Assembly: GCA_003315335.1 (NCBI GenBank)
Contig: QNRL01000006.1
Location: forward strand, 62,001 to 126,000
Reading direction: 5' to 3'
Length of the DNA: 64,000 nt
From: Pseudocitrobacter faecalis
Lineage (GTDB): Bacteria > Pseudomonadota > Gammaproteobacteria > Enterobacterales > Enterobacteriaceae
The position numbers were made by a program, and so were the translations under genes. Shown here in pieces: positions 19,014 to 36,824 of this stretch (within the stretch, counting starts at the first letter, position 1; every line of letters starts with the position of its first letter). Below the pieces are notes generated by a model. The model ran no database searches, was not told where the DNA came from, and worked only from the letters and a program-made list of their open reading frames with translations.

Positions 19014-19655
19014 ATGAAACCGTATCAGCGCCAGTTTATTGAATTTGCGCTTAGCAAGCAGGTACTGAAGTTTGGCGAATTTACGCTGAAATCCGGGCGC
19101 AAGAGCCCCTATTTCTTCAACGCCGGGCTGTTTAATACCGGGCGCGATCTGGCGTTGTTAGGCCGCTTCTACGCCGAAGCGCTGGTCGATTCCGCGATCG
19201 ATTTCGACCTGCTGTTTGGCCCGGCCTACAAGGGTATTCCGATTGCCACCACCACCGCGGTTGCGCTGGCGGAGCATCATGACCGCGATCTACCGTACTG
19301 CTTCAATCGTAAAGAAGCGAAAGACCACGGTGAGGGCGGTAGCCTGGTGGGTAGCCCACTACAGGGTCGCGTGATGCTGGTGGATGATGTGATCACCGCA
19401 GGCACGGCGATCCGCGAATCAATGGAAATCATCCAGGCTAACGGCGCGACACTGGCTGGCGTACTGCTCTCTCTCGATCGTCAGGAGCGTGGCCGTGGCG
19501 AGATTTCTGCGATTCAGGAAGTGGAGCGCGACTACGGTTGCAAAGTTATCTCCATCATCACCCTGAAAGACCTGATTGCCTATCTGGAAGAAAAACCAGA
19601 AATGGCGGAGCATCTTGCCGCCGTTCGCGCCTATCGCGAAGCTTACGGCGTCTGA
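19014..19655 (+). CDS. pyrE: orotate phosphoribosyltransferase PyrE
   Basis: Pyrimidine biosynthesis enzyme that joins orotate and PRPP to give OMP. It has 213 residues, as in E. coli. The PRPP-binding loop [16 protein letters not shown] (about residues 122-137) and the flexible loop [13 protein letters not shown] are conserved. It follows rph after the attenuator. Downstream, a palindrome and then a retron lie where E. coli K-12 has a short gap to slmA. Confidence 0.99.
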
Positions 19656-19661
19656 TTCATT

Positions 19662-19686
19662 ACGCTGCGGGTTCCGCCCGCAGCGT
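19662..19686. terminator. palindrome after pyrE (hairpin without T-run)
   Basis: A perfect 10-bp inverted repeat ACGCTGCGGG/CCCGCAGCGT (19662-19671 with 19677-19686) with a five-base loop starts 6 bp after the pyrE stop. It is not followed by a T-run in the sense direction, so termination may be weak. It marks the left junction of the retron; the published Ec107 retron of E. coli is described as replacing a palindrome in this same gap, so this hairpin may be a retained or related target sequence. Confidence 0.7.
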
Positions 19687-19731
19687 GATATGCCGAATAG
19701 TTTTCCCCGTCATGCCCATGTTATGCTTTCT

Positions 19732-19923
19732 GTGTCAGCAGTGGCGATAGCGTTTCTGGAGTTATCCAGAAGGGTCGGCGAGTCGCCGACTTCACGCCCG
19801 CAGTTCACTCATATACCCAAAGTCGTTCCATTGTACCTCGGCACGTTTCACGTGCGCGCGCTGTCGCGCGAAGTACATTTCCACGCCTTCGGGATGGTTT
19901 TCGAGTATCGCCGCTGTTGGCAC
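19732..19923 (+). ncRNA. retron msr-msd RNA (Ec107-like), predicted
   Basis: The 5' arm a1 (19732-19749) pairs with the 3' arm a2 (19906-19923) over 18 consecutive positions, with three G-T pairs; the cores are CAGCAGTGGCGATA and TATCGCCGCTGTTG. Immediately after a1 comes AGC, whose G (19750) is the expected 2'-branch guanosine. The msr part then shows two hairpins: TTCTGGA/TCCAGAA (19754-19771) and GTCGGCG/CGCCGAC (19774-19790). The msd part has TGTAC/GTACA (19832-19836 with 19873-19877) enclosing GCACGT/ACGTGC and GCGCG/CGCGC hairpins. A -10-like TATGCT at 19722-19727 would start transcription near 19733. If cDNA began just before a2, about 107 nt would run back to about 19799, matching the name Ec107. 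The ends are predictions. Confidence 0.8.
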
Positions 19924-19952
19924 CCACTTTTCTCAGCGATGTGGAGCGTTGA

Positions 19953-20912
19953 ATGGATGCGACCCGGGTTTGCCTTCTGGCGCTGGACTTATTTAGCTCT
20001 CCGGGCTGGAGCGCGAACGAAGAGATACGCCGGCTGTATGCACTCAGCAACAGCACATCGAAGCATTACCGGACTATCGTGTTGTCAAAGCGCGACGGCG
20101 GTGAGCGACAGATCCTGGCGCCTGATTATTTGTTGAAAACGGTGCAGCGCAATATCCTCAGGAACGTCCTCTCTCATTTCCCTGTTTCACCCTTTGCAAC
20201 GGCCTATCGCCCAGGTAGTACCGTGGTTCACAACGCGCGGCCTCACCTTTCTCAATCGCAGATTCTGAAGCTCGACATTGAAGGCTTTTTTGACAATATC
20301 AGTGGGTTACTGGTGTGGCGGGTTTTCCGCCAGACCACACTACCCAACGCTGTGGTGACGATGCTGACCCAACTTTGTTGTTATCGCGATGCGTTACCGC
20401 AGGGGGCGGCCACCTCGCCGGCGATTTCTAACCTGGTCATGCGGCGTTTTGATGAACGGATGGGCCGCTGGTGTCAGGAGCGGCATATTGTTTATACCCG
20501 CTACTGCGACGATATGACTTTTTCCGGCGAATTTTCCGCCCGGCAGGTGCGTAATAAAGCGGCGGCGCTGCTGGCTGAACTGGGGCTGCGGCTGAATAAA
20601 CGCAAAACTGCATTGATACCAGCATATAAACAACAGACGGTAACGGGGATCGTGGTGAACGAAAAGCTGCACATTTCCCGGGAACAACGCCGATTGTTGC
20701 GCCAGGAAGTGCACTACTGTCTGAAATTTGGCGTTGCGGCTCATCTGAGTCACAGCGGAAAATCGACAGAATCGGCGCTGTGTTACCTTCAGCGTTTGCA
20801 GGGGAAAATCGCCTGGCTGCTACAGGTTAACCCGGATGACCGGGCATTCAGGAGGGCGCTGCGTGACGTGCAGCAAATGATAAGGCAGATTGCTCTGCCT
20901 GAAACACGTTAG
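19953..20912 (+). CDS. retron reverse transcriptase (Ec107-like)
   Basis: RNA-directed DNA polymerase of 319 residues that would copy the msd part of the adjacent RNA from a 2'-branched guanosine to make msDNA. RT motifs in order: KRDGGERQI (fingers), the retron NAxxH motif at residues 94-98, LDIEGFF with Asp108, LPQGAATSP at 148-156, the catalytic box YCDD at 184-187 (YADD in many retrons), LNKRKT, and the retron-specific VTG at 230-232 followed by a basic thumb. A GGAG ribosome binding site lies 6 bp before the ATG, itself 30 bp after a2. Its stop codon overlaps the slmA stop by 4 bp, so no extra gene follows. Position between pyrE and slmA (ttk) matches E. coli retron Ec107. Retrons act in anti-phage defence; the effector is not evident here. 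Confidence 0.95.
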
Positions 20913-21505
20913 CGAAGCTGCGTGGCCATGAGCGGCCAGCGGGCGTCAAAATCGTCGGTAGGGCGATATTTGAATTCGCTGCGGACAAAACGAGAGAGCA
21001 TTCCTTCACAGAAGGCGAGCAGCTGACTTGCCAGCAGGGTTTCATCCGTCTCGTAGCCTTCACCTTCACGCATTTTCCGCTCGCGCAGTACCTGGCGCAA
21101 CTGGGCTTCAATGCGTTCGAAAAGCTGGTTGATACGCCCCTGCAGGCGATCCTGTTCGAACATTAGCGCGTGACCGGTAAGAATACGCGTCAGGCCAGGA
21201 TTACGTTCACCAAACCCGAGAATAAGCAGAACAATCAGGCGCAGACGCGCGGTAGTGTCCTTTTCATCTTTTAAAATCAGGTTGATGCGGGTAATCAGGC
21301 TATCTTCGATAAACTCGATAAGGCTATCGAACATGCGTGTTTTGCTGGGAAAGTGTCGATAGAGCGCGGCTTCGGAAACGCCCACAGAAGCCGCCAGCTT
21401 TGCCGTAGTAATGCGTTGGCTACCATCACTGGATTCAAGCATCAGCGCCAGAGATTGAAGTATTTCTTCGCGACGATTCCGTTTCGCAGTTTGCTTTTCT
21501 GCCAT
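20909..21505 (-). CDS. slmA: nucleoid occlusion factor SlmA
   Basis: TetR-family DNA-binding protein that blocks FtsZ ring assembly over the chromosome. It has 198 residues, as in E. coli. The helix-turn-helix is in residues about 30-60 ([20 protein letters not shown]), followed by the all-helical dimerisation/FtsZ-binding domain. It lies downstream of dut on the same strand, as in E. coli (older name ttk). It is convergent with the retron RT, with a 4-bp overlap of stop codons. Confidence 0.98.
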
Positions 21506-27508: not shown

Positions 27509-27825
27509 AGTACGCAGCTGGCTTAGGAATGTGCTGAGGATTCTAAGTATTTAGCCCAACCTTTACCATCATTTTTGCCGATTTGAGCTGATTTAGCGGG
27601 AAAAAGGGCTTTGCACCATTAAACGTTAAACTATATTTGCTTTTTTATATGATTAATTGAGGTTGTTGAGGCGTGGCTCAACGGTCTTACTCTTAAAGTA
27701 AACCCGTTGCGTAAGCATATTACTCATTGTTTTAAAAAAGAATATACTTAATTGAGGTTAAAAAATATTCAATTCGGTTTGCTTAGGAATAAGTGATACA
27801 CTAAGCCGCAATTAGAGCACGACGT

Positions 27826-27865
27826 CAGTATTCAGGTAACTGTGAGCCTGGGGCGGTAGCGTGCC
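27826..27865 (+). promoter_or_regulatory. JUMPstart leader with ops element upstream of waaQ
   Basis: This segment matches the JUMPstart consensus, and bases 27852-27863 are the ops core GGCGGTAGCGTG, where RfaH is recruited to paused RNA polymerase to suppress termination and aid translation of long polysaccharide operons. It lies 46 bp before waaQ. The rest of the 402-bp waaA-waaQ gap (27509-27910) is AT-rich and presumably holds the promoters of both; I see no other gene in it. Confidence 0.9.
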
Positions 27866-27910
27866 TTTTTTTCAATTTCGACTGGTTATTATCATCATAA
27901 AGAGCCGCTT

Positions 27911-28960
27911 GTGGAAAAAACGTTCACCCGAATTCTGGTTATTAAAATGCGTTTTCATGGGGATATGTTGCTGACTACGCCAGTTATCAGCACGCTGAAA
28001 CGTAATTACCCTGATGCGAAAATCGATATGCTGCTGTATCAGGATACGATCCCCATTATTTCGGAAAATCCGCAAATCAATGCGTTATATGGCATCAGTA
28101 ATAAAGGCACAGCGGCAACCGCGAAAATAGCGAATTTTTACGGATTGGTGAAAACCCTGCGGGCGAATCAGTATGACCTGATTGTCAATCTGACCGATCA
28201 ATGGATGATTGCGGTGCTGGTGCGTTTGTTGAACGCTAAAGTCAAAATCTCACAGGATTTTGCCCATCGCCAGTCGGCATTCTGGAAAAAAAGTTTTACC
28301 CACCTTGCGCCGTTTCAGGGCGAACACTGCGTGCTACGCAATCTCTCTGCGCTGGCGCCGCTGGGGTTAACTCAAATCTGTCAGGAAACATCCATGCCCT
28401 ACGCCCCAGAACATTGGGAGCGTATGCGGCAGCAACTGGATGCTTTCGGCGTGGGTGACCACTATGTCGTTATTCAACCGACCGCACGCCAACCGTTCAA
28501 GTGCTGGGATAACGATAAATTCGCGCAGGTCATCGATTCGCTCCAGCAGCGTGGTTATCAGGTCGTGCTGACCTCCGGGCCCAGCGCGGAGGATCTCGCT
28601 TGTGTGGAAGATATCGCCGCGCAGTGTAAATCTCGCCCGGTAACGGGGCTTGCGGGAAAAACGCGCTTTCCTGAACTGGGCGCGTTAATCGACCACGCCG
28701 TACTGTTTATTGGCGTCGATTCGGCACCCGGTCACATTGCCGCTGCGGTAAAAACGCCGGTGATTTGTCTGTTTGGCGCAACCGATCATGTTTTCTGGCG
28801 CCCCTGGACGGAAAATATTATTCAGTTCTGGGCCGGGAATTATCAGGCGATGCCGCCGCGCTCGCAGCTCGATCGCAATAAAAAATACATGTCCGTTATT
28901 CCTGCCGCCGATGTGATTGCGGCAACGGAGAAAATGTTGCCGCCGGGAGAGGCGCTATGA
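27911..28960 (+). CDS. waaQ: LPS core heptosyltransferase III WaaQ
   Basis: GT9 enzyme that adds the branching HepIII to HepII of the inner core. It has 349 residues. The family N-terminus ILVIKMRFHGDMLLTTPVIS and the ADP-heptose site VLFIGVDSAPGHIAAAVKTP are conserved. The start is GTG at 27911 with only a weak ribosome binding site, as is common for waaQ. It is the first gene of the core operon and overlaps waaG by 4 bp. Confidence 0.96.
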   Translation: MEKTFTRILVIKMRFHGDMLLTTPVISTLKRNYPDAKIDMLLYQDTIPIISENPQINALYGISNKGTAATAKIANFYGLVKTLRANQYDLIVNLTDQWMIAVLVRLLNAKVKISQDFAHRQSAFWKKSFTHLAPFQGEHCVLRNLSALAPLGLTQICQETSMPYAPEHWERMRQQLDAFGVGDHYVVIQPTARQPFKCWDNDKFAQVIDSLQQRGYQVVLTSGPSAEDLACVEDIAAQCKSRPVTGLAGKTRFPELGALIDHAVLFIGVDSAPGHIAAAVKTPVICLFGATDHVFWRPWTENIIQFWAGNYQAMPPRSQLDRNKKYMSVIPAADVIAATEKMLPPGEAL

Positions 28961-30081
28961 TTGTCGCCTTCTGTCTCTATAAATATTTTCCGTTCGGTGG
29001 CCTGCAGCGCGATTTTTTGCGCATCGCCCAAACCGTTGCGGCGCGCGGCCACCACGTTCGCGTTTATACGCAATCCTGGCAGGGAGACTGCCCGGCTGAG
29101 TTTGAATTGATTACCGTTCCGGTGAAATCGCGAACCAATCACGGGCGTAACGCCGAGTATTACGCGTGGGTGCAGGCGCATCTGAAAGCGCATCCTGCGG
29201 ATCGTATTATTGGTTTCAATAAAATGCCGGGTCTGGATGTTTATTACGCCGCCGACGTTTGTTATGCCGAGAAAGTGGCGCAGGAGAAAGGTTTTTTCTA
29301 TCGACTGACCGCTCGTTATCGTCACTACGCGGCGTTTGAACGCGCTACGTTTGAGAAAGGCAAATCCACACAGTTACTGATGCTGACGAATAAGCAGATC
29401 GCCGATTTCCAGAAGCATTATCAAACCGAGCCTGAGCGCTTCCATATTTTGCCGCCGGGGATTTACCCGGATCGCAAATATAGTCAGCAAATTCCTGATG
29501 CTCGCACAGTGTATCGCGCGAAAAACGGCATTGGTGAACACGATTTCTTGTTGCTTCAGGTCGGTTCCGATTTCAGCCGAAAAGGTGTGGACCGCTCGAT
29601 TGAAGCACTGGCGGCGCTACCGGATGCCCTTCGCTGCAAAACCACGCTTTATGTGGTCGGGCAGGATAAACCCGGTCGATTTGAAGCGCTGGCCACGAAG
29701 CGTGGCGTGCGTGAGAACGTCCACTTTTTCTCGGGGCGTAATGACGTCTCTGAACTGATGGCCGCCGCCGATGTGTTACTGCATCCAGCTTATCAGGAAG
29801 CAGCCGGGATTGTGCTGCTCGAAGCGATTACCGGCGGCCTGCCGGTGTTGGTAAGTGAAGTTTGCGGCTATGCGCACTACATCGCGGCGGCAAACTGCGG
29901 CGAGGTGCTGGGCGAGCCCTGGAAGCAGTCAGCGCTTAATGATGCGCTACGCAATGCATTGACGAATCCGCAACTCCGTCAGGCGTGGGCCGAAAATGCC
30001 CGCCATTATGCGGATACGCAGGATCTCTACAGCCTGCCTGAGAAGGCGGCTGATATCATAATTGGTGATGTCCATGGTTGA
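28957..30081 (+). CDS. waaG: LPS core glucosyltransferase I WaaG
   Basis: GT4 enzyme that transfers the first glucose of the outer core to HepII. It has 374 residues, as in E. coli. It has the GT-B layout with acceptor N-terminus ([17 protein letters not shown]) and the donor-site motif [16 protein letters not shown] (E-x7-E, about residues 281-289). The 4-bp overlap with waaQ and 8-bp overlap with waaP show tight translational coupling. Confidence 0.97.
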
Positions 30082-30871
30082 GTTGAAAGAACCTCTTGCG
30101 ACCCTCTGGCGCGGAAAAGATCCGTTTGAAGAGGTGAAAAAGCTGCAGGGGGAAGTTTTCAGAGAGCTGGAAACGCGTCGTACGCTGCGTTTTGAACTGG
30201 CCGGGAAAAGCTACTTCCTGAAGTGGCACCGCGGCACCGCGATGAAAGAAGTGGTGAAAAATCTGCTTTCGCTGCGTATGCCGGTGCTCGGTGCAGACAG
30301 AGAGTGGAACGCGATCCATAAATTGCGCGATGTCGGCGTAGATACTATGTGCGGCGTGGGTTACGGCGAAAAAGGTCTGAACCCTGTGCGCAAAGTGTCG
30401 TTTATCATCACCGAAGATCTGACCCCGACGATCAGTCTGGAAGATTACTGTGCAGATTGGGTCAACAATCCGCCGCAGCCGCGCGTAAAACGGATGATCA
30501 TCAACCGTGTCGCGACAATGGTAAGAAAGATGCACCTCGCGGGGATTAACCATCGCGACTGTTATATCTGTCACTTTCTGCTACATCTGCCGTTTGATGG
30601 CAATGAAGAGAATCTGAAGATTTCGGTTATCGACCTGCATCGCGCGCAAATGCGCAGTCAGGTACCGTTGCGCTGGCGTGATAAAGACCTGATTGGGCTC
30701 TATTTTTCATCGATGAACATTGGATTGACCCAGCGAGATATCTTCCGCTTTTTGAAGGTTTATTTTGCGAAGCCGCTGCGGGATATTCTGCATGACGAGA
30801 AAAATCTGATGGTTCAGGCAGCAGCAAAAGCCGAACGTATCAGAGAGCGGACTTTAAGAAAGCATCTGTAG
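30074..30871 (+). CDS. waaP: LPS core heptose I kinase WaaP
   Basis: Phosphorylates HepI of the inner core, which is needed for outer-membrane stability. It has 265 residues from the ATG at 30074 ([20 protein letters not shown]); an in-frame ATG at 30062 would add four residues. The kinase-like motifs include Lys in [13 protein letters not shown], the catalytic loop [14 protein letters not shown] and the metal-binding VIDLHRAQ. Confidence 0.96.
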
Positions 30872-31004
30872 CCCTGAGTTATTTATTTGTTTCGCAAGAC
30901 GAAAAACTAGCCTACGATTTTTCTGCATGCCTGACGGTTAGTGAAAAGCCAGATAACACTATTGCGAAACGTTGATTCATCGTATTGATGAGAAAGAGTG
31001 ATTA

Positions 31005-32021
31005 ATGAACCAGACTTACTTTGATGAGAGAGACGTCATTCTCTCAGTCAATGACTACAATTATCTGCCTGATTCAGAGAGTGGCGCGTTCGATATTGCT
31101 TACGGGATTGATAAGAATTTCCTGTACGGCTGCGGTATTTCAATAGCATCGATCCTGTTTGCTAATCGCAATAATCGCCTGGCGTTCCACGTTTTTACTG
31201 ATTTTCTGACCGACAGCGTGCGAGAGAAATTTGCCGCGCTTGCGAAACAGTATCAGGCTCGTATTGTTATCTATCTGGTGAATTGCGATACGCTCAAGTC
31301 CTTACCCAGCACTAAAAACTGGAGTTACGCGACGTACTTCCGTTTCATCATCGCCGATTATTTTGCAGGTAAAAGCGATAAAGTGCTTTATCTGGATGCG
31401 GATATCGGCTGTAAAGGAAGCGTTCAGGAACTCATTGATCTTCGCTTTACCGATAACGAGATTGCGGCAGTGGTGATGGAAGGCAATACCGCATGGTGGA
31501 CAAAACGCGCGGAAACGCTGTCGACACCGGGCCTGGCAGAGGGTTACTTCAATGCCGGTTTCCTGCTCATTAATATCGCCGCATGGAATACCGAAGAGAT
31601 TTCGAAGAAAGCCATTGAAATGCTGCGCGACCCGGAAGTTACCCGCAAGATAACGCACCTTGATCAGGATGTCCTGAACATGCTGTTGGTGGGAAAAGCG
31701 CGCTTTATCGATCCGAAGTTTAATACCCAGTACAGTCTCAACTATGAACTGAAGAAATCCGTTGTCAGGCCGGTGAATGATAAGACTGTGTTTATCCATT
31801 ACATCGGCCCAACGAAACCGTGGCACCTCTGGGGAGATTACCCGGTTTCAGCCTGCTTCCTGAATGCCAAAAAACATTCACCATGGCAGGATGATGCACT
31901 ATTGACGCCTAAAACGGCGGCTCAATACCGATACTGTGCCAAGCATCAGCTGCATCAGAAGCAATTTATTAAAGGTATTTTGAGTTACGTTCTTTATTTT
32001 AAAAAGAAAATCACAAAATAA
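31005..32021 (+). CDS. GT8 LPS outer-core glycosyltransferase (WaaI/WaaO type)
   Basis: Retaining glycosyltransferase of 338 residues that should add the second outer-core hexose to the WaaG glucose. The GT8 signature is clear: [20 protein letters not shown] near the N-terminus, the metal-binding DxD in [11 protein letters not shown] (about residues 131-133), and the C-terminal [15 protein letters not shown]. WaaI uses galactose and WaaO glucose; I cannot tell which applies here. It follows waaP after a 133-bp gap with no gene in it. It is a paralogue of the next gene. Confidence 0.85.
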
Positions 32022-32040
32022 AATATATATAGGTGATGCT

Positions 32041-33063
32041 GTGAACTCACTTCCTGTAATTGAAATATCTGAGTATAAGGTTTTTGATGATAGAACAAAT
32101 ACTCATGATGATAATGATGCGTTAAATATCGCGTATGGCGTAGACAGAAACTACCTCGACTGGGTGGGGATTTCTATTACGTCTGTGGTCATCAATAACA
32201 GTATTGATATCAATTATCATATTGTTGCTGATGAATATAATTCCTCTTTCCTCGCCAATATTGAAGCGTTAGCTAAAAAGTATAAGCTTAAAATAAGCCT
32301 ATACTTGATTAATGCAGAACGACTGGACTGCCTGCCACGTACTAAAGTCTGGTCTCGGGCAATGTACTTTCGACTATTTGCATTCGAACTCTTTAGTAAT
32401 AAACTGGATAAGCTGCTTTATCTGGACGCCGATGTGTTCTGTAAAGGACGTCTGGATGAGTTAGCAACCTGCGATCTTAATGGAAAGATCGCTGCGGTTG
32501 TGAAAGATGTTGATTCAATGCAGAAGAAAGTGATCGATAGATTGAAAGACCCTGAGCTTCAGGGAAACTATTTCAACTCTGGCGTAGTTTATGCCAACCT
32601 GAAGGAGTGGGTGAAAAATGATTTAACCCACCGAATTCTGGCAATGCTGACGCATGAAAATCACAATGATATTGTCTATAAATACCCTGATCAGGATGTA
32701 TTAAATATTTTACTTAAAGGTAAAATAAAGTTCCTCCCGCGAAAATTTAATACTATTTATACAATAAAAAGCGAGTTAAAAGACCGAACACATCAAAAGT
32801 ATAAAGAAACTATATTTGATGAAACGGTACTCATCCATTATACCGGTGTCACCAAACCGTGGCATAAGTGGGCTGTTTATCCCTCTGTTCGTTATTACTT
32901 GCAGGCACTGGCTGTATCGCCCTGGAAAGACCAACCTCCTCGCGATGCGCAGACTATCGTTGAATTGAAAAAGCGCTACAAACATCTGCTCGTTCAACAC
33001 AAATATTACTCCGGGTTTGTTGCTGGTGTGTCCTATTTGCTGAGAAAACATTCCATTCGCTGA
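32041..33063 (+). CDS. GT8 LPS outer-core glycosyltransferase (WaaJ/WaaR type)
   Basis: Second GT8 enzyme, 340 residues, expected to add the third outer-core hexose. It shares the layout of its neighbour: [20 protein letters not shown], the DxD in [29 protein letters not shown] and [14 protein letters not shown]. The start is GTG at 32041, preceded by AGGTGATGCT. From this gene onward the DNA becomes visibly AT-rich (AAT, ATA and TTA codons are frequent), unlike waaQGP. WaaJ and WaaR differ in acceptor and cannot be told apart here. Confidence 0.85.
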
Positions 33064-33088
33064 ATAATTTATTAACTTTTGGTTTATT

Positions 33089-33787
33089 ATGAGTATTAAA
33101 CATCACATTAACGATTATGTCGTTTTCACGAAGTCAGATGGTGAAAAATACATCGATGTGTTTAACGACTTTTTATCCTACAATATCAAAATTATAAAAG
33201 TATTCCGTAATATTGAGGACACTAAAGTTTTATTGATCGATACCCAGTACGGGAAAATGATCTTAAAAATTTTTGCACCAAAAGTTAAGCAGAATGAACG
33301 TTTCCTCAAAGCAATGGTGAAGGGCGACTACTACGAGAAACTGTTCGAGCAAACCGAGCGCGTCAGAAAAGAAGGCCTGGATTCAGTTAACGATTTCTAT
33401 CTGTTAGCGGAGAAGAAAACGTTACGTTTTGCACATTACTACATCATGCTGATTGAGTATATTGAAGGTGTTGAACTGGTTGATATTCCAGAAATAGACG
33501 ATGAACTCAAACAAAAAATTAAGGCGTCAATTTCCGGTTTACATCAGCACGGCATGGTTTCTGGCGATCCGCATAAAGGCAACTTTATCATTGAAAATGG
33601 CGTAGTCAGGATTATCGACTTGTCTGGTAAATCACCGTCTGCGATGCGTATGGCTAAGGACCGCATCGATCTTGAACGTCATTATGGTATCATTAATGAG
33701 GTTAAAGATGCGGGTTATTATCGTCTGATTTTTAAAAGGAATTTTCGGAACTTTATCAGACGACTTAAGGGCAAAAAAGTTCGCTGA
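33089..33787 (+). CDS. waaY: LPS core heptose II kinase WaaY
   Basis: Kinase that phosphorylates HepII of the inner core. It has 232 residues, as in E. coli. The catalytic segment GMVSGDPHKGNFIIENG has the Asp and Asn of the kinase loop, followed by VRIIDLSGK as the metal-binding motif; LIEYIEGVELVDIPE is the hinge region. It stands 25 bp after the GT8 gene. AT-rich codon use matches its neighbours. Confidence 0.94.
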   Translation: MSIKHHINDYVVFTKSDGEKYIDVFNDFLSYNIKIIKVFRNIEDTKVLLIDTQYGKMILKIFAPKVKQNERFLKAMVKGDYYEKLFEQTERVRKEGLDSVNDFYLLAEKKTLRFAHYYIMLIEYIEGVELVDIPEIDDELKQKIKASISGLHQHGMVSGDPHKGNFIIENGVVRIIDLSGKSPSAMRMAKDRIDLERHYGIINEVKDAGYYRLIFKRNFRNFIRRLKGKKVR

Positions 33788-33808
33788 ATCCTGGAGTGAA
33801 TTTAGTTA

Positions 33809-34762
33809 ATGAATATTTACTTTATTAACTGGACAGCCAGCTATGAGATCAAAATGATCGACTATTTGGCTAATGATTATCCAGTTACCAGGGTTACCAC
33901 GCCGGCATCATTAAATTGGCTAAGTCGAAAGTTTAAAAGACTTAAGTTCGTCAAAAAGATTTTAGCAAATTTATTTATTAGCCGATATTTTCCGAAACTG
34001 ACCCCAGAAGATGTCATTATTTATAATGACAGTCATGTGCTTAAAAGGCTTAATCCAGAAATTATAGAAGCCATCAATTGCCAACGAATACTGTTACTCA
34101 GAAATCCAGTCAGTGCCGATTTCATTAAAGAGATGAAGACGCGTTTTGAGAAAATTTATGGATTCGAAGAAATAATTTGTCAACAGAATAATATCTCTTA
34201 TATTCCACAGTTTTTTCCGATTGGTTTTAATGATCGAGACGTGGGGATAAATTCTTGGAATCCTATACGTCATCGCCGTTGTTACTTTATTGGAAAGGAT
34301 AAAGGTCGCTTTGCTGTAGTTAACGCGTTAGCAGAACAATTACGTAAATATGGCTGTAATCTTAATTTCCAGATCGTCCGAGATAATACATCTCAAGTTG
34401 CATCTCAACTATATAGTGATGAAAATATTACGTATGAACAAAACTTGGTAAATGCGCGTGAAACAGATTGCATTGTAGATATTACTCAGGATGCTCAGAC
34501 TGGATGGACTCTCCGTGTAATTGAAGCACTTTATTTTAATAAGAAACTTATAACTAATAATATATCTCTTTTAAAGAGTGATATTTATTCAACTGACCGT
34601 ATTTTTATTATTGGTCATGACTCATGGGATCGTTTTAGCAACTTTTTGGAATCAGAATTGCAACCTCTGCATGAAGATATTCTCTATCAGTATAGCCCCG
34701 ATTATATGATTGAAAAGCTTATTGATGATGCTAATAAAAAAATCAACGATAGGAAAGGGTAA
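33809..34762 (+). CDS. putative LPS core glycosyltransferase (possibly WaaS-like)
   Basis: Protein of 317 residues that I do not recognise with certainty. It has no signal peptide or membrane span. The N-terminus (MNIYFINWTASYEIKMIDYL) and the C-terminal motif QTGWTLRVIEALYFNKKLIT (about residue 230) resemble GT-B transferases of surface polysaccharides in which the Arg-x-x-Glu-Ala stretch forms part of the sugar-nucleotide site. The location between waaY and waaZ suggests a core decoration. WaaS (rhamnosyl transferase, 311 residues in K-12) is a candidate by size, but in K-12 waaS follows waaP. It is among the most AT-rich genes in the window, a sign of exchange. Confidence 0.6.
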   Translation: MNIYFINWTASYEIKMIDYLANDYPVTRVTTPASLNWLSRKFKRLKFVKKILANLFISRYFPKLTPEDVIIYNDSHVLKRLNPEIIEAINCQRILLLRNPVSADFIKEMKTRFEKIYGFEEIICQQNNISYIPQFFPIGFNDRDVGINSWNPIRHRRCYFIGKDKGRFAVVNALAEQLRKYGCNLNFQIVRDNTSQVASQLYSDENITYEQNLVNARETDCIVDITQDAQTGWTLRVIEALYFNKKLITNNISLLKSDIYSTDRIFIIGHDSWDRFSNFLESELQPLHEDILYQYSPDYMIEKLIDDANKKINDRKG

Positions 34763-34861
34763 ATTAAACTGTATATGCTATATACGTTTTTGTGGAGTTC
34801 ATCGTAGTTTAAAGTTTGCTGCATTTGCCGGCGAAAAGTAGCCTATCTCTACAGGTTTTTT

Positions 34862-35713
34862 ATGAAACATATTAAATATATTACACATGCTGATGTTCAG
34901 AGCCTGATTGAGCAGAAAACATCGGATGATGCGATCATTTTTCTGTCAGGCCCAACATCAAAGAAGACGCCACTTTCTGTACTGGAAAGTAAAGATGTCA
35001 TCACGGTGAATGGATCCGCGGATTATTTACTCAGTCACAATATCACGCCATTTATCTATATTTTGACGGATGCGCGTTTTTTGCATCAACGCCGAGACGA
35101 TTTCTATCGTTTCAGCCGCGGTAGCCGCGTTACTATCGTGAATACGGATGTTTATGAAGAGGCCTCAGAAGAAGATAAAAAATATCTCCGCGAAAAATGC
35201 TATATTCTCAAAGCGTTTTATAAGCGTGAGAAAGGCGGATTTGCCAAAAAAGTTAAGCTCGCAGTGCTGAGGCGTTTGTACCGCAATTTACTGATTAAGG
35301 TACCCTTCTCGAAGAGAGGGCGTCTTGTCGGTTTTTGTAAGGACATTGCGATTGGCTACTGCTCGTGCCATACCGTTGCTTATACTGCGATTCAGATTGC
35401 TTACTCGTTGTGCTATTCGCGGATTGTGTGCTCAGGACTCGATCTTACCGGTACCTGTCAGCGTTTTTACGATGAAAGCAATAATCCGATGCCTTCTGAA
35501 CTGAGCAAAGATCTGCATAAGATATTGCCGTTCTTTAAGTTTATGAGCCGCAATGTGCCTGATATGCGGATCTATAATCTGTCTGATGATACGGCAATCA
35601 GTTACGACATTATCCCTTTTATCGAAGCTTCAGAACTGGCTGATGCTACGCCAAAAAAGATCGTGGGTGCTAAAAAAAAATTCACATCTGATGATGCGCG
35701 TGTTCATGCATAA
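34862..35713 (+). CDS. waaZ: LPS core biosynthesis protein WaaZ (KdoIII transferase)
   Basis: Protein of 283 residues, the length of E. coli WaaZ, which is needed to add a third Kdo to a subset of inner cores. It opens with MKHIKYITHADVQSLIEQKT, and a central segment VCSGLDLTGTCQRFYDESN resembles the DUF115-like nucleotide-sugar fold. It sits 99 bp after the preceding transferase and before the WaaU-like gene, as in K-12 (waaY-waaZ-waaU). KdoIII addition often accompanies WaaS rhamnosylation, which makes the unassigned neighbour interesting. Confidence 0.88.
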   Translation: MKHIKYITHADVQSLIEQKTSDDAIIFLSGPTSKKTPLSVLESKDVITVNGSADYLLSHNITPFIYILTDARFLHQRRDDFYRFSRGSRVTIVNTDVYEEASEEDKKYLREKCYILKAFYKREKGGFAKKVKLAVLRRLYRNLLIKVPFSKRGRLVGFCKDIAIGYCSCHTVAYTAIQIAYSLCYSRIVCSGLDLTGTCQRFYDESNNPMPSELSKDLHKILPFFKFMSRNVPDMRIYNLSDDTAISYDIIPFIEASELADATPKKIVGAKKKFTSDDARVHA

Positions 35714-35747
35714 AAGCCGTATCGAATAGTTTCATCAATAACACCAT

Positions 35748-36824
35748 GTGCTGGTAAAAAAGATGCGCCTTGGAACATTTCACAAGAAAAAAAGATTATT
35801 AATTAATAAAATTAAAATCAACTTTCTCTCTTTTCTTTTTAGCCATAAAGGTGTGAAACTTTTACCTGCAAACTCTATCAAAAGCTGTTTGCTGATTCAT
35901 GATAATAGTAAGCTCGGTGATCTGATTGTCTTAAGTGCCTTATATCGGGCACTGGCCGAACGGGGTATAAAGTTGTCTATAATCTCCTGCGGTATTGGGC
36001 ATGCTTTTTTGAAAGCCAATCCAGGTATTTCCCACTTCTTTATCAAGGATTCAAATAGTATTTCAGAGGTTATGAAGCTTCGTAGAGAGCTTGCTAAGCA
36101 TCAATTCGATGTAGTGTTAGATCCTTTTGAAACACAGCCCAGCTTTGGCCATGCGCTGCTTCTGTCCGGGTTAAGACATCACTATATCCTTGGTTTCGAT
36201 AAGTGGTACAAACGCTACTACTCCAGCTATCATCCGCATGATGAGCAGTTAACGGAGCACATGGCCACGCGTACGCGAGTTATCTGTGAGCATCTGTTTG
36301 GCGAAGGCGTTCAATATGATGAGCGCTATGATTTGCCGCTTCCCACTGACGTTGAACAGCAATTACAAGAATTTGTCGGTGATACAAAGGTGGTGATAGT
36401 CAATCCCATCGGGGCGAAGAAAATTTGTCGGATGTCGAATCATCAAATTGAGCTTATCGATAGCTGGTTAAAAGAGAATCATCCGGAGCTGCGAATTATC
36501 TATACGGGGCATCCAAAAGATCTCCCGCTGATTCCGGTTAAGAATATCGAAACACTGCCGTTTAAAGATTTCATCCATGCCGTCGCGCTGACAAAATATT
36601 GCCAGTACGTTATCTCCGTAGATACTGCACTGGTTCATATTGCTTCAGCGTATGACAGGCCAACACTGGCCTTCTACCCGAAAGCGAGGCATGAAGATTA
36701 TCCATCACCGATTATTTGGGCGCCGAATAATCTACGGGCGCAACAGGTAATATCGCCAACTTGTAGCGCATGCGATATTGAAGAGACAGTATTGCTCGAT
36801 GCCTTAAAACGATTATTCCATTAA
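35748..36824 (+). CDS. waaU: WaaU-like LPS core heptosyltransferase IV
   Basis: GT9-family protein of up to 358 residues. The N-terminal SCLLIHDNSKLGDLIVLSAL and C-terminal YVISVDTALVHIASAYDRPT are the acceptor-side and ADP-heptose motifs of this family. Length and position at the end of the core operon match K-12 WaaU, which adds the terminal outer-core heptose. The reading begins at GTG 35748; an ATG at 35763 (MRLGTFHKKK) is an equally likely start because it aligns better with the family N-terminus. A WaaK-type role (GlcNAc) is less likely given the GT9 motifs. Confidence 0.82.
   Translation: MLVKKMRLGTFHKKKRLLINKIKINFLSFLFSHKGVKLLPANSIKSCLLIHDNSKLGDLIVLSALYRALAERGIKLSIISCGIGHAFLKANPGISHFFIKDSNSISEVMKLRRELAKHQFDVVLDPFETQPSFGHALLLSGLRHHYILGFDKWYKRYYSSYHPHDEQLTEHMATRTRVICEHLFGEGVQYDERYDLPLPTDVEQQLQEFVGDTKVVIVNPIGAKKICRMSNHQIELIDSWLKENHPELRIIYTGHPKDLPLIPVKNIETLPFKDFIHAVALTKYCQYVISVDTALVHIASAYDRPTLAFYPKARHEDYPSPIIWAPNNLRAQQVISPTCSACDIEETVLLDALKRLFH

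What the first reader, a model, noticed from the sequence alone, without database searches (positions are those of the whole stretch)
19732..20912. Compact Ec107-like retron between pyrE and slmA
A predicted msr-msd RNA followed by a 319-residue retron RT occupies the pyrE-slmA gap. E. coli retron Ec107 is known from exactly this site (pyrE-ttk). Finding it here, in a chromosome with a different surrounding order, raises the question of vertical retention versus repeated insertion at a fixed target. Retrons are anti-phage systems, and this subtype has little functional description.
Basis: partly seen in the sequence, partly recalled or inferred. Interest (0 to 1): 0.85.

Follow-up and report, generated by a model that had tools for sequence, protein, structure and literature searches.

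The report
Ec107-like retron in Pseudocitrobacter
Between two housekeeping genes this bacterium carries a small reverse-transcriptase element that should make a hybrid RNA-DNA molecule; it is a member of a known family (retron Ec107), notable mainly because the family shows no linked partner gene and sits at a different spot in each group of bacteria.

Summary
A 319-aa retron RT (19953-20912) preceded by a covarying msr-msd RNA (19733-19922) fills the pyrE-slmA gap of a Pseudocitrobacter genome. It is Ec107-like: PADLOC RT_Ec107-like E 1.6e-131, 70% identical to the E. coli protein, same site. The "different surrounding order" is wrong: about 33 kb are in K-12 order. It is in 4 of 4 genus genomes, 3 of 12 Escherichia genomes, and 373 of 5,426 E. 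coli genomes match. Other Enterobacterales keep relatives at cyaY/cyaA, cdaR/garD and yabI/araC; the eight pyrE-slmA copies form one RT clade and share hairpins at both ends. This favours one insertion, then descent or exchange through the flanks, over repeated targeting. An RNA model trained on 14 enterobacterial copies hits 60 of 74 non-enterobacterial relatives upstream of the RT, and no neighbouring gene is conserved. dN/dS of 0.10-0.14 suggests it is working; its task is unknown, and anti-phage action is not shown. New member of a known kind; the apparently effector-less family is the interesting part.

The parts
19014..19655 (+). pyrE, upstream flank (orotate phosphoribosyltransferase)
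   Evidence: NCBIfam TIGR00336 E 2.7e-70
19662..19686 (+). hairpin after pyrE, probably its terminator; a similar hairpin stands at the same place in Escherichia carriers
   Evidence: read from the sequence and the gap comparison; terminator role inferred, the terminator scan did not list it
19722..19727 (+). possible -10 box (TATGCT) just upstream of the RNA; weak
   Evidence: seen by eye; the promoter scan found no site
19733..19922 (+). msr-msd non-coding RNA (a1 19733-19749 paired with a2 19906-19922)
   Evidence: z -5.45; covariation in 14 sequences; covariance model hit 198.9 bits (the window is one of the training rows)
19750..19750 (+). predicted branching G (invariant in the alignment, directly after a1)
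   Evidence: alignment A4 column 21; role inferred from retrons in general (recalled)
19778..19786 (+). conserved tip GCGAGTCGC of the second msr hairpin
   Evidence: GCGAGTCG in 62 of 74 non-enterobacterial upstream regions, 0.4 expected; in 0 of 12 loci of other RTs
19800..19905 (+). predicted msd template, about 106 nt of RT-DNA if the ends correspond to those of a 107-nt Ec107 product that ends at a2
   Evidence: alignment arithmetic; ends inferred
19953..20912 (+). retron reverse transcriptase, 319 aa, NARPH (region X), YCDD at 20502-20513, VTG motif
   Evidence: PADLOC RT_Ec107-like 1.6e-131; alignment with E. coli
20883..20900 (-). hairpin inside the last codons of the RT that reads as a terminator-like site on the slmA strand; in Escherichia the equivalent hairpin lies after the RT stop
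   Evidence: terminator scan, 2 sites found against 1.7 expected by chance in the stretch; 3' ends compared
20909..21505 (-). slmA, convergent downstream flank; its stop codon overlaps the RT stop (20909-20912)
   Evidence: NCBIfam NF007015 E 5.7e-93; sequence

Best explanation
This is an Ec107-like retron. Transcription from just upstream of 19733 would give an RNA whose ends pair (a1/a2); the RT binds the msr hairpins, starts cDNA on the 2'-OH of G19750 and copies about 106 nt of the msd into a branched, hairpin-rich msDNA. The element went once into the pyrE-slmA gap of an ancestor of this group, taking the place of the short spacer, and came down, or was exchanged through the flanking genes, into Pseudocitrobacter and Escherichia. 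It is under purifying selection. No effector is linked to it or conserved beside its relatives, so the RT-msDNA complex most likely acts with a host-encoded partner elsewhere or by itself. Shown: RT class, RNA structure, site, shared boundaries, low dN/dS, no conserved neighbour among the loci examined. Inferred: msDNA production, priming, partner and task.
For: RT class: PADLOC RT_Ec107-like 436 bits against 313 for the next family; 70% aa identity to the E. coli pyrE-slmA RT. RNA: 96.5% of cells paired, 29 of 54 pairs with two-sided changes, slid controls at most 43% paired. The model trained on 14 enterobacterial RNAs hits 60 of 74 non-enterobacterial relatives at E <= 0.01, within about 260 nt upstream of the RT or touching it, and 0 of 5 loci of other retron-type RTs. 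One insertion: clade support 100/99; similar hairpins at both edges in both genera, against gaps of 36-180 nt without a gene in 21 of 28 RT-free loci. Divergence in step with hosts: mean RT dN rises 4.3-fold from within Pseudocitrobacter to between the genera, mean dS of six flanking genes 3.0-4.7-fold (means). Selection: RT dN/dS 0.10-0.14 in six pairs. No conserved neighbour: largest shared gene cluster 10 of 84 loci, AraC-type regulators; next 7.
Against: No msDNA was observed. RT-free genera lie nearer to each carrier than the carriers lie to each other, so pure vertical descent needs several losses. RT synonymous sites are saturated between the genera (pS 0.73-0.78 against 0.50-0.63 for flanks) and RT dS is above the flanks within the genus too (0.44-0.53 against 0.17-0.40), so descent in step with the hosts rests on dN. 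14 of 74 distant loci did not reach E 0.01 with the RNA model, 8 of them with no hit at all. The shuffle control for the number of pair types was not exceeded (288 of 500). A partner encoded elsewhere in the genome was not looked for.
Confidence: 0.85

Rival explanations
1. Repeated independent insertion: pyrE-slmA is a fixed target that Ec107-like retrons hit separately in Escherichia and Pseudocitrobacter.
For: The gap also receives other genes: a related 1.2-1.3 kb insert in L119, L123, L124 and L125 (the one scanned, L124, is SMP-30/gluconolactonase-like). RT-free genera lie between the two carriers.
Against: The eight copies are one clade, share similar hairpins at both ends, and relatives in the sister clades use other sites.
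Confidence: 0.07
2. Transfer by homologous recombination through pyrE and slmA, rather than vertical descent from a common ancestor, explains the two genera.
For: Carriers are patchy: 373 of 5,426 E. coli genomes match, 3 of 12 Escherichia genomes, 11 of 392 genomes of the family at any site at E <= 1e-60; RT-free genera lie between.
Against: RT dN between the genera is about what host divergence predicts, and the two groups are reciprocally monophyletic, so any exchange was old. 4 of 4 Pseudocitrobacter carry it.
Confidence: 0.4
3. The retron is self-sufficient: RT plus msDNA, with no protein effector anywhere, does the job (for example sensing or titrating a DNA-binding protein, or defence without a toxin).
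For: No conserved neighbour in 84 loci; in 16 of the 70 non-enterobacterial loci with both neighbours called, both lie on the other strand; the 88 RTs examined are 301-357 aa by my start choice, leaving no room for a large added domain.
Against: An unlinked host partner would look the same. The neighbour test used ORFs of at least 80 aa and would miss small proteins; 24 of 42 same-strand downstream ORFs start within 60 bp of the RT end, so lineage-specific partners are possible.
Confidence: 0.25
4. The flanking genes are the partner: pyrE is a phosphoribosyltransferase and slmA a helix-turn-helix protein, as the PRTase plus winged-helix pair of type III-A retrons.
For: Type III-A is the next best RT match and its effectors are PRTase/WH (PMC12548924, passages). 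RT and slmA overlap at their stop codons.
Against: Relatives sit beside cyaY/cyaA, cdaR/garD, a VTT-domain gene and araC, or tyrS instead; 381 of 392 family genomes have no match to this RT at E <= 1e-60, and pyrE-slmA without it is common (21 of 28 loci with a gene-free gap).
Confidence: 0.04
5. A decaying remnant without function.
For: Patchy presence.
Against: Open frame in 4 of 4 genus genomes, dN/dS 0.10-0.14, compensatory changes in the RNA.
Confidence: 0.04

Closest known systems
Retron-Ec107 (Retron-Eco5) of E. coli
   Same: Site between pyrE and slmA, RT class, YCDD catalytic box, homologous RNA, similar edge hairpins (YCDD and the replaced palindrome of Ec107 in the review PMC6868368, passages). 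That the E. coli copies compared here are Ec107 itself follows from site and class; no Ec107 type record was fetched.
   Different: 70% RT identity; predicted RT-DNA about 106 nt instead of 107; the RT frame runs on through the slmA-side hairpin and overlaps the slmA stop.
Ec107-like RTs of Bacillota (e.g. L018, L026)
   Same: Best PADLOC family is RT_Ec107-like (7 of 7 such proteins scanned); RNA with the GCGAGTCG hairpin upstream in most; no conserved neighbour.
   Different: 42-53% identity, other intergenic sites.
Type III-A retrons (RT + PRTase + WH)
   Same: Second-best RT match.
   Different: No retron-encoded PRTase or WH gene here; 313 against 436 bits.
Retron Ec86 RT, solved structure
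   Same: Best PDB sequence match, E 6e-40, residues 33-267.
   Different: Ec86 works with an NDT-type effector (recalled); none is linked here.

Membership tests
Retron | Retron-type RT with region X (NAxxH) and VTG motif | tested here: met
   NARPH, YCDD and VTG in the protein; 84 of 88 Ec107-like RTs have NAxxH and 85 of 88 VTG (NAxxH from PMC6868368, VTG recalled)
Retron | msr-msd RNA with a1/a2 inverted repeat next to the RT and a branching G after a1 | tested here: met
   17-pair a1/a2 helix, 12 pairs with two-sided changes; invariant G at 19750; that this G is the branch point is inferred
Retron | Branched msDNA with a 2'-5' link is produced | not testable with these tools
   needs RNA/DNA work
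Ec107-like retron | RT falls in the Ec107-like class | tested here: met
   87-row clade, SH-aLRT 97, apart from 9 other RTs (quick tree)
Ec107-like retron | Same RNA architecture as the E. coli copy | tested here: met
Ec107 (the E. coli element proper) | Replaces a palindromic spacer between pyrE and slmA | tested here: met
   K-12 gap of 42 nt (both outer stop codons included) with one palindrome against 1,259 nt here; the 34-bp figure is from PMC6868368 (passages)
Effector-bearing defence retron (tripartite) | Linked or fused effector gene | tested here: not met
   RT of 319 aa with one Pfam domain; neighbours are pyrE and slmA; none conserved over 84 loci
Effector-bearing defence retron (tripartite) | Protects against phage | not tested
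   no experiment
Group II intron or DGR RT | RT closest to maturases or DGR RTs | tested here: not met
   group II model 1.3e-17, 64 bits against a cut-off of 300, versus 1.6e-131 for Ec107-like; no DGR family among the six NCBIfam hits
Type III-A retron | PRTase and winged-helix genes in the cassette | tested here: not met
   only pyrE and slmA adjoin, both present without the RT in other genomes; III-A RT models score lower

The most novel reading that the evidence does not exclude
Ec107-like elements are a retron lineage spanning Enterobacterales and Bacillota that has dispensed with any linked effector: RT and RNA alone co-evolve as a two-part module, settle in one intergenic spot per lineage between core genes, and are kept by selection, so that the msDNA-RT complex itself (or with a conserved host protein) has a cellular task other than guarding a toxin.
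Probability: 0.35. Interest if true: 0.65.

Novelty: new member of a known kind. Interest (0 to 1): 0.4.

Why it matters
As far as I know (recalled), what msDNA does in cells whose retron has no effector gene is still open. A family with a well-defined RNA, a clean insertion, closely related strains without it and low dN/dS makes that directly testable, and warns against calling every retron an anti-phage system from annotation alone.

Tried and rejected
Repeated insertion at a fixed target: disfavoured by tree and edges. PyrE/SlmA as PRTase/HTH effector pair: considered because type III-A retrons use PRTase and WH proteins; disfavoured because relatives lie beside other genes. SlmA binding to the msDNA: a SlmA-site-like TGAGTAC (motif recalled, from no call) is in 4 of 14 enterobacterial RNAs, among them the E. 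coli copy L002 but not the window's nor the three other Escherichia and three other Pseudocitrobacter copies; dropped. Preference for convergent gene pairs: the four enterobacterial sites each have a convergent gene downstream, but in non-enterobacterial loci it is 29 of 71 with a downstream neighbour called, against 87 of 295 for plus-strand genes of the same loci, RT pairs included: a weak excess, not claimed. Type III-A neighbours: the seven other loci were RTs of other build; a look at their ORFs showed no PRTase that I recognised (not scanned by Pfam). Rfam: one hit in the window at gathering threshold, JUMPstart, none in the retron; in the retron stretch only one hit, E 3.3, to an unrelated sRNA family. 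Phages and plasmids: matches below 60% identity only; viral contigs: 9 loci, at most 30%. Papers: Ec107 with retron in 6 papers held; 'Ec107-like' in none; retron with pyrE and slmA in none; retron, Lachnospiraceae and msDNA in 3, seen only as a listing; my search for effector-less retrons was swamped by unrelated words. The 2020 classification paper and the 1996 expression paper are not held, so an earlier report that this class lacks an effector cannot be excluded. No structure was predicted.

Full report
What is there. The ORF at 19953-20912 codes a 319-aa reverse transcriptase. Its best PADLOC family is RT_Ec107-like (E 1.6e-131, 436 bits), followed by RT_III-A (313 bits); NCBIfam gives retron St85-type RT just under its cut-off (232 of 235 bits) and group II intron RT far below its own. 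It has NARPH, YCDD and VTG; the 2019 review notes YCDD for Ec107 (PMC6868368, passages). It is 70% identical to the RT of an E. coli strain at the same site and 88-89% to those of the three other genomes held of its genus. The genus is Pseudocitrobacter: two of those three are the named records L012 and L013.

The RNA. Region 19733-19922 folds at -82.2 kcal/mol (z -5.45, 0 of 200 shuffles as good). Fourteen enterobacterial copies from four sites align over their whole length. Of 54 consensus pairs 29 show changes on both sides that keep the pair, 96.5% of cells pair, and none of 500 shuffles reaches these values or the covariation score; the number of pair types is no higher than in shuffles (288 of 500); sliding the structure drops pairing to 30-43%. 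A covariance model built from these 14 was run over the window, 74 non-enterobacterial loci with Ec107-like RTs (L018-L091, nearly all Bacillota; from the best 80 of 170 relatives kept) and five loci of other retron-type RTs. Of the 74, 60 reach E <= 0.01, on the RT strand and within about 260 nt upstream of the RT or touching it; six more lie between 0.015 and 0.42, eight have no hit; none of the five controls reaches 0.01 (best 0.27). GCGAGTCG, the tip of the second msr hairpin, is in 62 of the 74 upstream regions (0.4 expected), in 14 of 14 enterobacterial ones if a G-to-A variant is counted, and in none of 12 loci of other RTs. In the window's genome the RNA model matches once.

The site. 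In K-12 the pyrE-slmA gap is 42 nt counted with both outer stop codons and consists of one palindrome. Of 28 loci from other genera of the family (L117-L144), 21 have a gap of 36-180 nt, four hold a 1.2-1.3 kb insert with one related gene (L119, L123, L124, L125; the L124 gene is SMP-30/gluconolactonase-like, the others by eye), and three gave no pyrE in reach. In Pseudocitrobacter the gap is 1,259-1,260 nt and in Escherichia carriers 1,306-1,309 nt. Both groups show two similar edge hairpins: GCTGCG...CGCAGC after pyrE and AGGCAGA...TCTGCCT before slmA. In Escherichia the second lies after the RT stop. In Pseudocitrobacter the RT frame runs through it and ends in the four-base overlap TTAG with the slmA stop; the hairpin is a terminator-like site on the slmA strand by a scan that finds about as many in shuffled sequence.

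Distribution. The RT is in 4 of 4 genomes of the genus and 3 of 12 genomes of the genus of G385, which is Escherichia since its locus is identical to the named record L014. Of 5,426 complete E. coli genomes 373 match, 369 of them over at least 80% of the query, all on chromosomes (5,374 gave a pyrE match); six of six opened lie between pyrE and slmA. At any site it is in 11 of 392 genomes of the family at E <= 1e-60. Plasmids and phages gave only matches below 60% identity, viral contigs 30% or less.

One insertion rather than a fixed target. Relatives in other Enterobacterales lie between cyaY and cyaA (two genomes), cdaR and galactarate dehydratase (two), and a VTT-domain gene, which I take for yabI, and araC (two). 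In a careful tree of 36 RTs each site is one group: pyrE-slmA 100/99, cdaR-garD 100/99, yabI-araC 100/100, cyaY-cyaA 95/51, the last weak. In a quick tree of 96 RTs the enterobacterial ones lie inside a clade otherwise of Bacillota, two Mycoplasmatota and two unassigned rows. The PADLOC model scores five of seven non-enterobacterial proteins higher than the window's, so the class as such and its breadth were already known. Mean RT dN is 4.3-fold higher between Pseudocitrobacter and Escherichia than within Pseudocitrobacter, mean dS of six flanking genes 3.0-4.7-fold. RT divergence thus keeps pace with the hosts in dN; RT synonymous sites are saturated between the genera and above the flanks within the genus, which fits faster evolution or exchange of alleles. 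The host tree puts RT-free genera nearer to each carrier than the carriers are to each other and needs three changes. I conclude one insertion, followed by descent with losses or by old exchange through pyrE and slmA; the data do not separate these.

No linked partner. Over 84 loci (some from the same genome) the largest family of neighbouring genes was AraC-type regulators in 10, and no other passed 7; loci that share neighbours are mostly close kin. In 16 of the 70 non-enterobacterial loci with both neighbours called, both are on the opposite strand. The 88 RTs are 301-357 aa by my start choice. The class therefore looks effector-less, unlike tripartite defence retrons; small proteins, lineage-specific neighbours and unlinked partners remain possible.

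How it probably works. By analogy with retrons in general (recalled), the RT binds the msr, primes on the branching G after a1 and copies the msd; with ends as in Ec107 the product is about 106 nt (19800-19905). The 2019 review reports Ec107 induction on phosphate starvation and entry to stationary phase (PMC6868368, passages). RT dN/dS of 0.10-0.14 in six pairs says the protein matters. Whether it defends against phage is untested.

Verdict. A sound observation of a known kind of element in another genus, with one wrong side claim. The wider pattern, an RT-RNA pair without a linked effector from Enterobacterales to Clostridia with one site per lineage among the enterobacterial groups, is what deserves follow-up.

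Noticed in passing
L119, L123, L124, L125 (pyrE-slmA gap): In four other genera the same gap holds one related gene, SMP-30/gluconolactonase-like in the one scanned (L124), so this spacer receives different cargo in different lineages.
   Followed up: partly
L118 and L122 (pyrE-slmA gap): RT-free gaps of 89 and 95 nt hold longer palindromes that look like REP/BIME repeats (name recalled), so the replaced spacer may often have been a REP-type repeat.
   Followed up: no
window 27826-27863 +: JUMPstart RNA (Rfam RF01707, 51.4 bits) at the edge of the waa (LPS core) genes.
   Followed up: no
window 27759-36682: The stretch that corresponds to the K-12 waa core genes matches K-12 at 65-72% or not at all, while the blocks on either side match at 78-86%: a diverged LPS core locus.
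   Followed up: no
L045 and L076: The RT reading frames of these two relatives hold one in-frame stop each: broken copies or assembly errors.
   Followed up: no
L023, L026, L027, L028, L033, L039: Six Lacrimispora/Hungatella-type loci share three neighbouring genes that read like aromatic amino-acid genes (by eye), another case of one site in a lineage.
   Followed up: partly
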